33,169 nucleotides of DNA from a virus: the IMG/VR virus record IMGVR_UViG_3300000576_000011, positions 1-33,169 of that record. One strand, given 5' to 3'. Position 1 is the first letter of the stretch, and each line of letters begins with the position of its first letter. The translations under genes were made by a program, and so were the position numbers. Positions 4,704 through 31,575 of the stretch are shown in pieces. Under the pieces are notes generated by a model. The model worked only from the letters and a program-made list of their open reading frames with translations, ran no database searches and was not told the DNA's origin.

Positions 4704-5975
4704 CGACCATTTTTGATCGTTTAAGTTCCAGTGAACTCATATTCCTGCTTCACTGAAGTCTGCCTGTCGGATTCTACGAATCCTTTAGGTCTTACATCTC
4801 CTCCACAGGCAAATCCCGTCGTTGCAACGGTTCTTTTATATTCATTTAACAAATTATTAGCAGCATTAGCATCTCGGTCCATGATAGAATCACAATTATC
4901 ACAACTAAATACTCGGTCAACTAGAGTCAAATCTTTCTTGATCCAACCACAACACGAGCAAGTTTTGGAAGATGGATACCAGCGAGATACTTTATGGACG
5001 ACAGAAACTTTTCTTGATAATGCTTGGACAAAACCGCACCATGATAACTTCTGTATAGCGCCTGATAATTTTCTGTTCTTTTTCATACCTTGAATATTCA
5101 GATCTTCCACTGAAACAACATCATACTGCTTGGCTATCGCTGATGATGTAGTTTCTATGAAGTTTTTATTTATCCTTCGGATCTTTCTATATTGTCTAGC
5201 AACTTTAATGCGAGCTTTATTTCGATTAGAACTTCCTTTCTGTTTTCTGGCATGTCTCTTCTGTAGTGTTTTTAATTTCTTGTATTCTTTACTTAAATCG
5301 GGTGATAAAATGCATTCACCATCACTTGTCACTGCAAATGTCTTGATGCCTAAGTCAATACCAACAGCATTATTTGCATCATAGTGAATTTCTTTTTCTG
5401 GTAACTCACAAAGAATAGACACGTACCAGCGATCTACGTCTTTACTTATAGTGAGTGACTTAACTTTACCTTCTAGCTTCCTGTGCATCTTACATGAAAC
5501 CCAACCTATTTTTGGTAACTTGATTTGGTTGGGTCTAATGATGAAGTGTTGCGGTACATTAAAGGATGGGCTAGAAGATCTTTTTGATTTGAACTTTGGA
5601 AATCCAGCCTGTTTCTTCCTGTTTTTACAAAATCTATTTTTGAAAGCAGCAGCAAGATTCATAGCTGATTGTTGGAGGGATTGGCTATTAATTTCTTTAA
5701 GGAAAGGGTATACATTTTTAAGTTCAACTAATTTATTAGTCAATGAATATCCAAGAATGAATTTACCAGAACTTTCATATTCTGCAATACTTGCTTCTAG
5801 TAGTTTATTATACACAAATCTGCAACATCCGACAGACTTTTCGAAGAATTCCTCTTGTTCTTCTGTAGGGTATAGTCTGAATTTAAACGCTTTATAAATA
5901 TTATTGCTGGACATTTGCTTTCTTTGTCTAGAGGTAATGGAGGTTAGGAGCTCGCGATTACCGTTTCATTTATAA
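4700..5975 (-). mobile_element. IS200/IS605-family element carrying only tnpB (boundaries approximate)
   Basis: The element consists of tnpB (5914..4721) and short ends. At the tnpB 3' side (right end) a 6-bp hairpin with an AAAAAT loop lies at 4703-4720. Upstream of tnpB (left end) GGTAAT/ATTACC arms at 5933-5938 and 5957-5962 form a subterminal hairpin, as IS605 left ends do. No tnpA is present, so it belongs to the IS1341-like, non-autonomous type. In this family an omega (re) RNA is made from the tnpB 3' end through the right end, with its guide taken from the flank. Here the guide would read the phage sequence just below 4700. The exact ends cannot be fixed without an empty site. Confidence 0.65.
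4721..5914 (-). CDS. tnpB: TnpB RNA-guided nuclease (IS605 OrfB)
   Basis: The 397 residues have the full TnpB layout. An N-terminal OrfB helix-turn-helix region (KAFKFRLYPTEEQ, VYNKLLEA) is followed by the RuvC parts GIDLGIKTFAV (D187), VSVEDLNIQGM (E270) and DRDANAANNLL (D346/D348). A zinc ribbon has CSCC at 319-322 and CDNC at 338-341. All three catalytic acids and four cysteines are present, so the nuclease is probably active. TnpB cuts DNA guided by omegaRNA next to a short motif matching the element's left flank, which favours retention and spread of the element. Plus-strand frames inside this gene are shadows. Confidence 0.92.
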   Translation of the reverse strand: MSSNNIYKAFKFRLYPTEEQEEFFEKSVGCCRFVYNKLLEASIAEYESSGKFILGYSLTNKLVELKNVYPFLKEINSQSLQQSAMNLAAAFKNRFCKNRKKQAGFPKFKSKRSSSPSFNVPQHFIIRPNQIKLPKIGWVSCKMHRKLEGKVKSLTISKDVDRWYVSILCELPEKEIHYDANNAVGIDLGIKTFAVTSDGECILSPDLSKEYKKLKTLQKRHARKQKGSSNRNKARIKVARQYRKIRRINKNFIETTSSAIAKQYDVVSVEDLNIQGMKKNRKLSGAIQKLSWCGFVQALSRKVSVVHKVSRWYPSSKTCSCCGWIKKDLTLVDRVFSCDNCDSIMDRDANAANNLLNEYKRTVATTGFACGGDVRPKGFVESDRQTSVKQEYEFTGT

Positions 5976-15161: not shown

Positions 15162-15629
15162 ATGGCAGATTCAACAGTAGTTACACGGAAACATATCCGG
15201 AGAGTTCAAGAACTTCTTCATGATACAGCAATTGTAGAACTTATGAAGAGATCACGACTACATGATCTATCTAAGTTTGAAGATGTAGAACGAGTTCCTC
15301 TGGATAAAATGCAAGAACTTATTGAAAAAGAAGGTCAAGCACAATTCGGTACACCGGAATACAAGAAAAGAACTGATCTACTTGGTGAAATGATCACACA
15401 TCACAGAGCTAATAATTCCCATCATCCTGAATACTATGAAGACGGTGTGAATGGTATGGACTTATTTGACGTCATGGAAATGTTTTTTGATTGGAAGGCC
15501 GCATCAGAACGTGGTGAAGACTCTTGTATGAGACTTGGTGCTGCATGTGACAAATATGAAATCGATCCACAACTTAGAAAGATCCTCTATAATACAGCTG
15601 AAAGACTAGGTTACAAGGCTGATGAATAA
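15162..15629 (+). CDS. DUF5662-like phage protein, HD-like His motif
   Basis: The 155 residues contain RSRLHDLSKF, EMITHHRANNSHHPEYYE and DVMEMFFDWKAASERGED. This pattern is typical of the DUF5662 proteins found in many phages and resembles a metal-binding HD-type helical fold. The conserved His and Asp residues suggest a hydrolase or metal site, but no activity is established. It lies 14 nt after the polymerase and is translated from AAAGGAG, so it is probably co-transcribed with the polymerase and uvsX. Confidence 0.68.
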   Translation: MADSTVVTRKHIRRVQELLHDTAIVELMKRSRLHDLSKFEDVERVPLDKMQELIEKEGQAQFGTPEYKKRTDLLGEMITHHRANNSHHPEYYEDGVNGMDLFDVMEMFFDWKAASERGEDSCMRLGAACDKYEIDPQLRKILYNTAERLGYKADE

Positions 15630-15686
15630 ATAGTACCGTGGAGTAGCTCTCTACATAAAATCAAACAGCAATAAAAAGGAAAATAA

Positions 15687-16601
15687 ATGTCCGCACTACT
15701 AGACAAACTAAAGAAGTCTGGGTCTATCAAACACGCATCTATCGTTGAAGATTCAGCATTTTTCAATTCCACAGAAAATGTAAAGACCGATTTACCTATT
15801 TTGAATTTAGCCTTTTCGGGTGATTTCAATAAAGGGTTTTCACCTGGTCTCACTTTCTTGGCCGGTGAATCAAAAAGCTTCAAGACACTTCTAGGTCTTT
15901 ACTGTATGAAAGCTTACCTTGACAAATATCCAGAAGGTATTTGTCTGTTCTATGATTCTGAATATGGCACGACTCCTGATTATCTAAAAACTAATGGTAT
16001 TGATACTTCTCGTGTCCTTCACGTTCCTATTGAGCATGTAGAGCAGTTGAAATTTGATATCGTGAAAAGACTTAAAGATCTAGAACGTGGTGATAAAGTA
16101 TTCATCTTCATTGATTCAATCGGTAACTTAGCATCAGTAAAAGAAGTTGAAGATGCTGAAAATGAAAAATCAGTTGCCGATATGTCTCGTGCTAAGGCAC
16201 TTAAATCTCTATTCAGAATTATTACTCCTTCACTCACAGCTAAAGAACTACCTTGTATAGCAATTAACCACATCTATAAAGAAATGGGTCTTTATCCAAA
16301 ATCTATCATGGGTGGCGGTTGTTTGGTAGAAAATACTGAAGTGCAAATGTATGACGGTAGTATGAAATTTATTCAAGATATTAAAGTTGGCGATTTAGTA
16401 AAAACTTTAGAAGGACCTAAATCTGTAGAACATACTTGGAATCCAGAAACTTTAGAAATTGGCGAACCAGAATGTTTTGAAATAGAATTTGAAGATGGTT
16501 ATACTGTAACTTGTTCTGATAATCACCCCTTTCTGACAGATAAAGGATGGGTTAAAGCTAAGGATCTCACAATAGATATGAATATTGTTTCAGCAGAGTA
16601 A
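15687..16601 (+). CDS. uvsX: UvsX recombinase N-half fused to split-intein N-fragment
   Basis: Residues 1-211 are the N-terminal part of a RecA/UvsX-type recombinase, with Walker A GESKSFKT (60-67, very close to T4 UvsX), Walker B VFIFIDSIG (138-146) and INHIYKEMG. After SIMGGG the protein runs into an intein N-fragment at Cys212 (TGT at 16320). This has block A CLVENTEVQMYDGSMKF and VGDLVKT, and block B CSDNHPFLT then GWVKAKDL, and stops after 93 intein residues. The break falls in the GG-(S/T)-G-MYSA motif equivalent to the RecA L2 DNA-binding loop, so the half is inactive alone. It needs the C-part at 17601 and trans-splicing. Confidence 0.92.
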   Translation: MSALLDKLKKSGSIKHASIVEDSAFFNSTENVKTDLPILNLAFSGDFNKGFSPGLTFLAGESKSFKTLLGLYCMKAYLDKYPEGICLFYDSEYGTTPDYLKTNGIDTSRVLHVPIEHVEQLKFDIVKRLKDLERGDKVFIFIDSIGNLASVKEVEDAENEKSVADMSRAKALKSLFRIITPSLTAKELPCIAINHIYKEMGLYPKSIMGGGCLVENTEVQMYDGSMKFIQDIKVGDLVKTLEGPKSVEHTWNPETLEIGEPECFEIEFEDGYTVTCSDNHPFLTDKGWVKAKDLTIDMNIVSAE

Positions 16602-16628
16602 ATAGTACCATAGTCAAAGTGCATTTTT

Positions 16629-16658
16629 AATAAATAATCCTATACTAAACTATAGGAG
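16629..16658 (+). promoter_or_regulatory. Late promoter plus RBS-hiding hairpin before the homing endonuclease
   Basis: AATAAATA (16629-16636) matches the late-promoter element. A 7-bp stem (16638-16644 with 16651-16657, 6-nt loop) pairs most of the AGGAG ribosome binding site (16654-16658) of the gene starting at 16666. By T4 late-promoter spacing transcription would begin near 16642. This removes the 5' arm and frees the ribosome binding site. Confidence 0.6.
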
Positions 16659-16665
16659 TTTAAAA

Positions 16666-17610
16666 ATGCACGTAGTCTATTTTATAACGTTTATTGATAG
16701 AAAAGATAATAACATCCAACCTTATTATTATATTGGATCAAAATCCAACTGCACTTTTGATGGATATAATATATTAGATAAAAAAGGTAAAATATATTAT
16801 GGTTCTAGTAACAGAAATGACTATCAAAAAATTGTTAGATCAGAAAAAATAAAAGTAGATATTTTATATGAAACAGAAAATTATGACGATTGTTTAAACC
16901 AAGAAAGAAATATACAACTACAAAATGACGTCGTAGTTGATACTCGTTTCTTTAATGCATCTTTGGCACTAGAAAATAATTTTCATAAACCTAATTATGG
17001 TACTTATAGACATATTGAAACTGGAAAGAAAGTACGATTAGAGAAAAATCATCCTAAAGTTTTAGATGGTACTTATATTAATATTAATAAAGGATATAAA
17101 ACATATAATAACGGCACTATACAAAAACAGTTTTTGAATGAAACAGATGTTCCTGAAGGTTGGACAAAAGGTGTTTTAGAAAAAAATAAACTTAAAGGTG
17201 AAAATAATCCATTTTATGGTAAAAAACATACTGAAAAAAGCAAAAAGAAAAATCGTGAGGGACAAGAAAATTTTAAAAAAAATAATCCTGAACTTTATGA
17301 TGAAATGATAGAAAAAAGACGTAAAAGAACTTCATTGACTTTTAAGGGTGTGCCTAAATCAGAAGAATCTAATAGAAAAAGAATTAGACGTAATTTAATA
17401 ATGTTAAAAAATATTCATACAGGTGAATGTGTGCGTGTAGATAAAAAATTCAAAGACGATTATGATTCTAATGTTTGGAAAAACCCTTATGCAGCAAAAA
17501 AACACCAAATGATAAAATGCCCTCATTGTGGTAAAATTAATGAATATAATTCATCTTTCAAAAGATGGCATTTTGATAAATGTAAAAAAAGGAAAATTGA
17601 ATGCGAATAA
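16666..17610 (+). CDS. GIY-YIG homing endonuclease inside the fractured uvsX gene
   Basis: The 314-residue protein has an N-terminal GIY-YIG nuclease domain (VVYFI at 3-7, PYYYIGSK at 19-26, KIYYGSS, and a Glu in NQERNIQLQ). It continues with NUMOD3-type DNA-binding repeats (NPFYGKKHTEKSKKK about residue 183, then a second KGVPKSEESNRKR) and a C-terminal CPHCGK...HFDKC zinc finger. The gene is much more AT-rich than uvsX. It is free-standing: the N-intein stops 64 nt before it, and it overlaps the C-intein start by 10 nt. It probably cuts intein-less uvsX alleles so that the cassette is copied in. No splicing domain is fused to it. Confidence 0.85.
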   Translation: MHVVYFITFIDRKDNNIQPYYYIGSKSNCTFDGYNILDKKGKIYYGSSNRNDYQKIVRSEKIKVDILYETENYDDCLNQERNIQLQNDVVVDTRFFNASLALENNFHKPNYGTYRHIETGKKVRLEKNHPKVLDGTYININKGYKTYNNGTIQKQFLNETDVPEGWTKGVLEKNKLKGENNPFYGKKHTEKSKKKNREGQENFKKNNPELYDEMIEKRRKRTSLTFKGVPKSEESNRKRIRRNLIMLKNIHTGECVRVDKKFKDDYDSNVWKNPYAAKKHQMIKCPHCGKINEYNSSFKRWHFDKCKKRKIECE

Positions 17611-18137
17611 ATTCTATAAAATCAGTAGGTAAAAAACCCGTATATGATATTACCGTGTCAAATATACATCATTATTTTTTAAAAAATGGTGTAGTTACAC
17701 ATAATTCCGGCGGAATGTATTCAGCGAATACTATCTTTTTCATCACTAAAGCACAAGAAAAAGATGGCACTGATCTGGCTGGTTATAAATTCACTATCAA
17801 TATTGAAAAATCACGATATGTCCGTGAAAAATCTAAGTTTCCATTTGTAGTCACTTATGAAAAAGGTATAGACAAATATTCCGGTCTCCTTGATTATGCT
17901 CTACAAGGTGAATTTGTTATTAAACCGTCTATGGGTTGGTACCAGAAAGTCGATCCGGATACTGGTGAAGTACTAGAAGGTAAGTACCGAGAAAAGGATA
18001 CTCACACTAAAGAATTCTGGGATATGTATCTAAGTAGTGATAAATTTCTTGATTATTGTTCATCGAGGGTTAAACTTGGTTCAGTGAAACTAGATAAAGA
18101 AGATCTAGTTGAAGAAACATTAAAAGAACTAGAATAA
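17601..18137 (+). CDS. uvsX: Split-intein C-fragment fused to UvsX recombinase C-half
   Basis: The first 35 residues are an intein C-fragment, with block F VYDITVSNIHHYFLKNG and block G VVTHN. They are followed directly by Ser (TCC at 17706), the +1 nucleophile. The remaining 143 residues continue UvsX: SGGMYSANTIFFITKAQ, KDGTDLAGYKFTINIEKSR and KSKFPFVVTYEKGID, all counterparts of T4 UvsX. Joining residues 1-211 of the first part to these gives a 354-residue recombinase with an intact GGGSGGMYSAN junction. It has its own ribosome binding site (AAAGGAAA, 8 nt upstream of the ATG), as a separately translated half requires. The start overlaps the endonuclease gene by 10 nt. Confidence 0.92.
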   Translation: MRINSIKSVGKKPVYDITVSNIHHYFLKNGVVTHNSGGMYSANTIFFITKAQEKDGTDLAGYKFTINIEKSRYVREKSKFPFVVTYEKGIDKYSGLLDYALQGEFVIKPSMGWYQKVDPDTGEVLEGKYREKDTHTKEFWDMYLSSDKFLDYCSSRVKLGSVKLDKEDLVEETLKELE

Positions 18138-22242: not shown

Positions 22243-22363
22243 AGAATATTTTGAATTTAGAAAAGGTCGAGACTTCAGACAACGAGAAGTAGATTTACTT
22301 CGAGAAGCAGTACATACTATCAAAAAATTAAGAGAGCAAGTGAAAGAGGGACCTCAGAAATGA
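22199..22363 (+). CDS. Hypothetical coiled-coil protein, 54 residues
   Basis: The start is ATG 22199 (MDISPIETRLKERIEEYFEF), preceded by GGAGG at about 11 nt. The product is strongly charged and helical (REVDLLREAVHTIKKLREQV). It overlaps the metallopeptidase-like gene by 44 nt, and its stop falls in the loop of the terminator at 22347. Confidence 0.5.
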   Translation: MDISPIETRLKERIEEYFEFRKGRDFRQREVDLLREAVHTIKKLREQVKEGPQK

Positions 22364-22376
22364 GAGTCCCTTTATT
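22347..22376 (+). terminator. Rho-independent terminator with GAAA tetraloop
   Basis: AGGGACCTCA (22347-22356), loop GAAA and TGAG-a-GTCCCT (22361-22371) form a 10-bp stem with one bulged A, followed by TTATT. It ends the middle gene block just before the late promoter at 22377. Confidence 0.7.
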
Positions 22377-22384
22377 CATAAATA
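22377..22384 (+). promoter_or_regulatory. Late promoter element CATAAATA
   Basis: CATAAATA lies 24 nt before the ATG at 22408 and directly after a terminator. It matches the T4-type late element recognised by the phage sigma gp55. Confidence 0.6.
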
Positions 22385-22407
22385 ATTGAAAAACAGGACT
22401 CTCCAAT

Positions 22408-31109: not shown

Positions 31110-31157
31110 AACCAGGTCATAAATACTCTGTAAAAGGAGTGTTCTATTGACCTGGTT
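31110..31157 (+). promoter_or_regulatory. Late promoter within a 10-bp inverted repeat that covers a start codon
   Basis: AACCAGGTCA (31110-31119) and TGACCTGGTT (31148-31157) are perfect inverted repeats. The 3' arm covers the TTG start (31147-31149) of the GIY-YIG gene. CATAAATA (31118-31125) lies at the 5' arm, so a late transcript starting near 31131 would lack that arm and leave the start codon free. Confidence 0.6.
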
Positions 31158-31575
31158 CTATAATGGAAAAGAATTTACTGAATTACCAGAAGGATATGTG
31201 GGATTTGTCTATATACTGACTCATAAAAAATCCGGCAAATACTACATCGGTAAAAAAATTTTTCATTTCAAAAAGACAAAGCAGGTCAAGGGGAAAAAGA
31301 AGCGCTTTTTGGTTGAATCGGATTGGAAAGTATATTATGGTTCATCTGATGAAGTCGCTTCAGTGATTCAACAAGAGGGAGAAAACTCTTTTGACAGAAA
31401 AATCCTACGACTCTGTAAGAGCAAAGCTGAATTATCCTATTTCGAAGCTAAGTACCAATTCGAAAAAGATGCTTTACTCGATCCTAACAGCTATAATTCT
31501 TGGATTTCTGTTCGGGTGCGTCGTGCTCACTTAGCAAAACTAATAAAGGAGCTGGAGAATGGCATCCCAGAGTAG
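31147..31575 (+). CDS. GIY-YIG nuclease, TTG start
   Basis: The TTG at 31147 has AGGAG 7 nt upstream. The 142-residue protein contains GFVYILTHKKSGKYYIGKK (GIY and YIG elements at about 20-36), a KVYYGSSDEV motif, FDRKIL and a Glu in SYFEAKYQFE. The same KxYYGSS and downstream spacing occur in the uvsX-linked homing endonuclease, so the two nuclease domains belong to one family. This protein lacks NUMOD repeats and a zinc finger. It may be a stand-alone Seg-like homing nuclease or a domesticated one. Confidence 0.75.
   Translation: MTWFYNGKEFTELPEGYVGFVYILTHKKSGKYYIGKKIFHFKKTKQVKGKKKRFLVESDWKVYYGSSDEVASVIQQEGENSFDRKILRLCKSKAELSYFEAKYQFEKDALLDPNSYNSWISVRVRRAHLAKLIKELENGIPE

What the first reader, a model, noticed from the sequence alone, without database searches (positions are those of the whole stretch)
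16629..16668. I-TevI-like expression switch before the uvsX-linked endonuclease
A 7-bp hairpin (16638-16644 with 16651-16657) hides the AGGAG ribosome binding site of the endonuclease in any transcript coming from uvsX. A late-promoter element AATAAATA (16629-16636) sits just upstream. With T4 late spacing the start would be near 16642, cutting off most of the 5' arm and exposing the ribosome binding site. This is the logic established for T4 intron endonucleases such as I-TevI. Its use for an endonuclease within a split intein gene appears not to be described. It would keep the nuclease silent early while uvsX is translated.
Basis: partly seen in the sequence, partly recalled or inferred. Interest (0 to 1): 0.75.

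Follow-up and report, generated by a model that had tools for sequence, protein, structure and literature searches.

The report
Late-only switch for a phage endonuclease
A T4-like phage carries a DNA-cutting gene in the middle of its split recombinase gene, with its start signals locked inside an RNA hairpin that only a transcript begun late in infection should escape; many related phages show the same arrangement, which extends a known T4 control trick to genes interrupted by split inteins.

Summary
The 7-bp hairpin (16638-16644/16651-16657) is the inner tier of a two-tier RNA structure. The late box AATAAATA (16629-16636) lies between the two 5' arms. A T4-type start at 16642 removes the outer 5' arm and 4 of 7 inner pairs; the predicted cost of opening the ribosome binding site drops from 19.5 to 3.3 kcal/mol. 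The same anatomy, with unrelated sequences, recurs in most of 44 distinct leaders of split-intein uvsX loci. ATAAATA precedes 31/44 of these starts against 7/120 other gene starts, and is absent from all 23 split loci whose endonuclease is lost or degenerate. The downstream IntC-uvsX-C start is open. Split-intein loci of gp41-1 and NrdJ-1 carry the same device, as does a second GIY-YIG gene in this window (31147). Mechanistically this is the I-TevI/SegB/mobE late switch in a new context: a new variant of a known kind. Late initiation and translation are inferred, not measured.

The parts
15687..16601 (+). uvsX N-half (15687-16319) fused to split-intein N fragment IntN (Cys1 codon 16320; stop 16599-16601)
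   Evidence: PHROG UvsX-like recombinase 1.6e-65 and RecA Pfam; IntN aligns with 14 relatives, 49-61% identity; junction codons
16619..16630 (+). outer helix, 5' arm (GTGCATTTTTAA)
   Evidence: fold, pairs with 16660-16671
16629..16636 (+). T4-type late promoter box AATAAATA (-13 to -6)
   Evidence: sequence; A(-13) variant at 9 of 50 T4 sites; positional enrichment of ATAAATA
16638..16644 (+). inner helix, 5' arm (TCCTATA)
   Evidence: fold
16642..16642 (+). predicted late transcript start (inferred; any start at 16640 or later opens the RBS fully)
   Evidence: T4 spacing; start-site scan
16651..16657 (+). inner helix, 3' arm, overlaps the Shine-Dalgarno sequence
   Evidence: fold
16654..16658 (+). 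Shine-Dalgarno AGGAG of the endonuclease
   Evidence: sequence
16660..16671 (+). outer helix, 3' arm (TTAAAAATGCAC), contains the ATG 16666-16668
   Evidence: fold
16666..17610 (+). GIY-YIG/NUMOD3 homing endonuclease, 314 aa
   Evidence: phrog_7504 homing endonuclease 6e-22, NUMOD3 4.8e-6; 14-member family with invariant YIG and YGS motifs; SegE_GIY-YIG matched by 2 of 14 members
17589..17593 (+). Shine-Dalgarno AAGGA of IntC-uvsX-C, inside the end of the endonuclease ORF, unstructured
   Evidence: opening energy 2.4 kcal/mol
17601..18137 (+). split-intein C fragment IntC (17601-17705, ending HN) fused to the uvsX C-half
   Evidence: Pfam T4_UVSX_C 3e-13; PHROG recombinase 5e-62; junction codons
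31110..31158 (+). second two-tier switch of the same design: outer 31110-31119/31149-31158, CATAAATA 31118-31125, inner helix over the SD
   Evidence: fold -34.2 kcal/mol, z -6.0; RBS opening 16.2 to 2.1 kcal/mol
31147..31575 (+). free-standing GIY-YIG gene (TTG start) controlled by the second switch
   Evidence: phrog_7363 homing endonuclease 1.9e-13; 24 of 40 relatives have ATAAATA plus a closed RBS

Best explanation
A late-only expression switch of the I-TevI type for a homing endonuclease lodged between the halves of a split-intein uvsX gene. In early or middle transcripts reading through from uvsX, the leader folds into a two-tier hairpin: the inner 7 bp lock the Shine-Dalgarno sequence and the outer 12 bp lock the start codon, so the endonuclease is silent, while the open IntC-uvsX-C start lets both UvsX halves be made and spliced. 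Late in infection, RNA polymerase with the gp55-type sigma starts at AATAAATA; the transcript begins near 16642 without the outer 5' arm and without 4 of 7 inner pairs, so the endonuclease is translated once replication and UvsX-driven recombination are available for homing. Shown here: sequence anatomy, predicted fold, comparative conservation, linkage to presence of the endonuclease. Inferred: late initiation, translational silence, homing activity.
For: Two-tier fold z -5.8, independent of context. RBS opening 19.5 to 3.3 kcal/mol after a late start. 44 distinct leaders in 27 similarity clusters from split uvsX loci: median opening 11.0 against 4.5 for 120 other gene starts in the same loci (p 4e-16) and 2.5 for the IntC starts downstream (43/44 pairs, p 2e-13). 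ATAAATA 15-60 nt upstream in 31/44 leaders (16/27 clusters) against 7/120 starts (Fisher p 2e-9 on clusters). Predicted late start lowers closure in 31/31. Own 5' region closes the RBS better than foreign leaders: first in 22/44, top 10% in 37/44. Compensatory changes: 4 of 10 pairs in one subfamily, all cells paired, against 21-50% when slid; in another, the first base of codon 2 (GAC/AAC) covaries with the leader. 0 of 23 split loci with lost or degenerate endonuclease carry ATAAATA. Same device at gp41-1 (11 variants, 9.7 to 3.7 kcal/mol) and NrdJ-1 loci. Late sigma gp55 homologues in 9 of 12 long contigs that carry such loci.
Against: No transcript, protein or cleavage data. The window fragment lacks gp55, so late transcription in this phage is assumed from its T4-like relatives. 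The box is AATAAATA, not the perfect TATAAATA. 13 of 44 leaders lack ATAAATA, some leaders are no more closed than shuffles (L015, L106, L109, L120, L163), and some loci lack the device (L098 VmeM-32, L104 Thanatos-1, L163). In L153 and its copies the IntN frame runs through the switch, so ribosomes would melt it.
Confidence: 0.87

Rival explanations
1. A constitutive damper: the hairpin simply keeps endonuclease translation low at all times and the AT-rich box is not a promoter.
For: No start-site data; the bare ATAAATA count in the window equals chance; several leaders have a hairpin but no canonical box (L030, L115, L172).
Against: The box is placed 25-45 nt before the start in 31/44 leaders, always so that a T4-spaced start frees the RBS; 7/120 at other starts; ATAAATA is strongly positioned before gene starts in the window; a second gene in the window has the same three-part layout.
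Confidence: 0.07
2. Translational coupling: ribosomes finishing uvsX-IntN at 16599-16601 melt the hairpin, so the endonuclease is made at a low rate together with UvsX.
For: Short gap (64 nt) between stop and start; in some relatives the 5' arm begins only 8-10 nt after the stop (L099, L102), and in L153 the upstream frame overlaps the switch.
Against: In the window the outer arm starts 18 nt beyond the last base of the stop codon, outside the usual ribosome footprint (general knowledge); structure with a 19.5 kcal/mol cost would be a poor design for coupling; coupling gives no reason for the late box.
Confidence: 0.04
3. The inverted repeats act at another level: intrinsic terminator, RNase processing site, or DNA operator for autorepression as in I-TevI.
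For: I-TevI binds an operator overlapping its late promoter (PMC2988022); AT-rich inverted repeats can serve several roles.
Against: No terminator-like site at the locus; leader shows no resemblance to the joined uvsX insertion site (best 13/20 against 13.0 in shuffles); what is conserved is complementarity to the RBS and AUG, not sequence.
Confidence: 0.02

Closest known systems
I-TevI, I-TevII, I-TevIII of phage T4 (intron-borne homing endonucleases)
   Same: RBS locked by a hairpin in early/middle read-through RNA; late promoter inside or next to the 5' arm removes the block (PMC2988022 section 12).
   Different: They lie in group I introns spliced at the RNA level; here the ORF lies between split-intein genes joined at the protein level. 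No operator resemblance was found here.
mobE of Aeromonas phage Aeh1
   Same: Endonuclease gene embedded in, and splitting, a conserved enzyme gene (nrdA), with late promoter and RBS-sequestering hairpin (PMC2988022 sections 12 and 17).
   Different: Free-standing HNH enzyme; the split enzyme is not described there as rejoined by an intein. Here GIY-YIG, with IntN and IntC on the two halves.
T4 segB and T4 lysozyme gene e leaders
   Same: Late promoter within the sequence encoding the 5' arm of an RBS-sequestering stem (PMC2988022; PMC3014915).
   Different: Not inside a fractured gene.
Fractured genes with split inteins and an inserted endonuclease (gp41-1, NrdJ-1 and others; Dassa et al. 2009, NAR 37:2560, not held, known to me from memory)
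   Same: Same gene arrangement; the gp41-1 and NrdJ-1 loci found here also show the late box and stem.
   Different: Host gene uvsX; whether that paper describes this switch could not be checked. I recall only that its abstract mentions apparent gene control elements at some loci.

Membership tests
I-TevI-type late translational switch | SD and/or start codon sequestered in a stable stem in read-through RNA | tested here: met
   two-tier fold, z -5.8; AUG paired 1.00, SD 0.85
I-TevI-type late translational switch | T4-type late promoter whose start lies 3' of (most of) the 5' arm | tested here: met
   AATAAATA 16629-16636, start 16642 by T4 spacing; sequence match only
I-TevI-type late translational switch | late 5' end mapped in vivo | not testable with these tools
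   no RNA data
I-TevI-type late translational switch | translation repressed from long RNA, active from late RNA | not testable with these tools
   only predicted opening energies: 19.5 against 3.3 kcal/mol
I-TevI-type late translational switch | autorepressor operator resembling the homing site at the promoter (I-TevI shown, II and III proposed) | tested here: not met
   best 13/20 match to the joined insertion site, shuffles mean 13.0; the operator is an added layer for I-TevI, not shared by all switch members
Split-intein fractured gene with inserted endonuclease | N-half ending in IntN, endonuclease ORF, C-half starting with IntC, with splice-junction residues | tested here: met
   Cys1 at 16320 after MGGG; HN followed by Ser at 17700-17708; UvsX halves by Pfam/PHROG
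Split-intein fractured gene with inserted endonuclease | trans-splicing activity | not testable with these tools
   no assay
GIY-YIG homing endonuclease | GIY-YIG catalytic domain | tested here: inconclusive
   window protein itself matches phrog_7504 homing endonuclease and NUMOD3, not the Pfam GIY-YIG model; 2 of 14 aligned relatives match SegE_GIY-YIG; YIG and YGS motifs invariant
Intrinsic terminator | G+C-rich stem followed by a T run | tested here: not met
   none at the site

The most novel reading that the evidence does not exclude
Late-only expression is a rule for endonucleases inserted between split-intein halves in T4-like phages (uvsX, gp41, NrdJ), maintained across GIY-YIG and HNH-like enzymes, and its main purpose is to protect the host enzyme: ribosomes crossing the endonuclease ORF would run over the IntC start that lies inside its 3' end, so silencing the ORF early secures balanced synthesis of both halves for trans-splicing. 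This would be the protein-splicing counterpart of the finding that delayed I-TevI translation protects intron splicing.
Probability: 0.25. Interest if true: 0.75.

Novelty: new variant of a known kind. Interest (0 to 1): 0.58.

Why it matters
It shows that the timing control known from T4 intron-borne and free-standing homing endonucleases recurs in a third type of niche, the gap between split-intein halves, in essential replication and recombination genes. It includes the loci behind gp41-1 and NrdJ-1, which are widely used as protein-ligation tools. Because culturable E. coli phages (SYGD1, RPN226, HY03) carry it, the question of why homing endonucleases are kept silent early (toxicity, homing timing, or protecting expression of the host gene) can be tested where no intron RNA folding is involved. 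The anatomy also gives a sequence rule for finding late promoters and regulated endonucleases in uncultured T4-like phages.

Tried and rejected
Intrinsic terminator: no site at the locus. Endonuclease operator at the promoter: no resemblance to the joined insertion site. Motif count alone as evidence: rejected, because ATAAATA occurs as often as chance in the window; only its placement is informative. Switch as a fixed companion of this endonuclease family: rejected, because a free-standing relative in E. coli phage Shinka (L240, between gp49 and nrdD) overlaps the upstream stop codon and has no leader. Other split inteins: the gp41-8 query gave one weak, unrelated locus; of five NrdJ-1 hits only the identical one (L235) is a split-intein locus. 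PDB sequence search of the endonuclease: nothing. Reading Dassa 2009 and the two Aeh1 mobE papers: not held. Covariation on the HNH-type subfamily as a whole is weak because the leaders are too similar; it is clear only for one subfamily. No structure prediction was run, since the fold of the endonuclease would not bear on the switch.

Full report
Setting. The window is a 33,169-b virus record from a T4-like phage: DNA polymerase, uvsX, gp41 helicase, primase, nrdA and thymidylate synthase all match T4-type families. uvsX is fractured. The first ORF (15687-16601) holds the UvsX N-half and an intein N fragment, the second (16666-17610) a homing endonuclease, and the third (17601-18137) an intein C fragment and the UvsX C-half. 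The junctions read MGGG/C...HN/S.

Observation. Folding shows more. The 7-bp hairpin is the inner tier; a 12-bp outer helix (16619-16630 with 16660-16671) buries the AUG. The leader folds at -22.5 kcal/mol, z -5.8, whatever the length of flanking RNA, with AUG paired 1.00 and SD 0.85. The late box lies between the two 5' arms. Its first letter is A, as at 9 of 50 listed T4 late promoters, where the box spans -13 to -6 (PMC2988020); this puts the start at 16642. Opening the -14 to +3 region costs 19.5 kcal/mol in the long RNA and 3.3 in the late RNA. Any start at 16640 or later opens it fully, while a start at 16636, which keeps the inner hairpin, leaves 7.5.

Is it chance? Shuffling the 5' region gives 5.5 +/- 1.6 kcal/mol (z 8.6), and no foreign leader closes this RBS as well (0 of 43). 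The bare motif count in the window is at chance, but its placement is not: 9 of 18 occurrences lie 15-75 nt before a gene start against 0.6 expected. Of 31 gene starts on the plus strand the two most closed are the two GIY-YIG genes (16666 and 31147), and both have the box between an outer and an inner arm.

Relatives. Scans of IMG/VR and of phage records gave 84 loci with a split uvsX intein and at least 400 b between the halves. They include cultured phages of E. coli, Salmonella, Klebsiella, Enterobacter, Proteus, Yersinia, Pseudomonas and Vibrio. They reduce to 44 usable distinct leaders in 27 similarity clusters. Start codons were set by hand in six cases. Both GIY-YIG type and HNH-like (MNYxKIY) endonucleases occur. 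Median RBS opening is 11.0 kcal/mol against 4.5 for 120 other gene starts in the same loci. ATAAATA precedes 31 of 44 against 7 of 120. With a late start the median falls from 10.8 to 2.7, lower in all 31. The own 5' region ranks in the top tenth against foreign leaders in 37 of 44. Leader sequences differ freely while pairing is kept: in the SYGD1-type subfamily 4 of 10 pairs show compensatory change and every cell pairs; in the HNH-type subfamily codon 2 (GAC or AAC) covaries with the leader.

Linkage to the endonuclease. In 23 split loci where the endonuclease is deleted or degenerate (some are copies of each other), none has ATAAATA between the halves. L024, a near relative of L023 with a broken endonuclease, keeps the stem but not the box. 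At gp41-1, L187 lost the endonuclease together with the box and the 3' arm. The IntC-uvsX-C start is open (median 2.5 kcal/mol; 43 of 44 pairs lower than the endonuclease start), as needed if both UvsX halves are to be made while the nuclease is silent.

Other genes. The gp41-1 split-intein locus has TATAAATA in the loop of a 12-bp stem before its GIY-YIG ORF, and the NrdJ-1 locus has TATAAATA and a two-tier stem. The free-standing GIY-YIG family of ORF 31147 has ATAAATA in 24 of 40 distinct leaders, median opening 14.4 falling to 4.2. A gp55-type sigma is encoded by 9 of 12 long contigs with such loci.

Interpretation. The device works like the T4 switch for I-TevI, I-TevII, I-TevIII, SegB and Aeh1 mobE (PMC2988022) and gene e (PMC3014915). 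What differs is the niche: the gap between split-intein halves. Late initiation, silence of the long RNA and homing are inferred from these precedents; none was measured. Held literature does not describe the switch in split-intein genes, but Dassa et al. 2009 could not be read, and I recall that its abstract mentions control elements brought in with the endonuclease. I therefore rate this a new variant of a known kind.

Exceptions. L163 has neither box nor closed RBS. VmeM-32 (L098) and Thanatos-1 (L104) have no comparable leader. SEA1 (L095) and EniLVp02 (L106) have stems that do not clearly cover the RBS. L015, L109 and L120 are no more closed than shuffles. In L153 the IntN frame overlaps the switch. 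The statistics treat related leaders as separate except where clusters are named.

Noticed in passing
window 31110-31575: A second two-tier late switch (outer helix over the TTG start, CATAAATA, inner helix over the SD) before a free-standing GIY-YIG gene downstream of nrdA; 24 of 40 relatives of that gene have ATAAATA and a closed RBS.
   Followed up: yes
L184-L232; L235: The gp41-1 and NrdJ-1 split-intein loci carry TATAAATA inside or beside a start-sequestering stem before their inserted endonucleases; the gp41-1 ORF lacks an obvious Shine-Dalgarno sequence.
   Followed up: partly
window 15627-15637 and 16599-16609: Exact 11-nt repeat TAAATAGTACC directly after two stop codons (the gene before uvsX, and uvsX-IntN); meaning unknown.
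   Followed up: no
window 15625-15632: AATAAATA also lies 61 nt before uvsX itself, whose RBS is open (1.7 kcal/mol), suggesting uvsX may also have a late promoter without a lock.
   Followed up: partly
window 22360-22407: CATAAATA before gene 22408 is flanked by GAGAGTCC and GGACTCTC, which could pair near the start but compete with an upstream hairpin.
   Followed up: no
L119, L137, L138, L140, L145, L173 and L025, L043, L131-L133, L143, L181: A series of uvsX inteins: split with endonuclease, split with an eroded endonuclease, split and empty, and continuous without endonuclease; a possible record of loss and re-fusion.
   Followed up: partly
window 4721-5914 (-): A transposase gene (phrog_506, 4e-115) within the T4-like fragment.
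   Followed up: no
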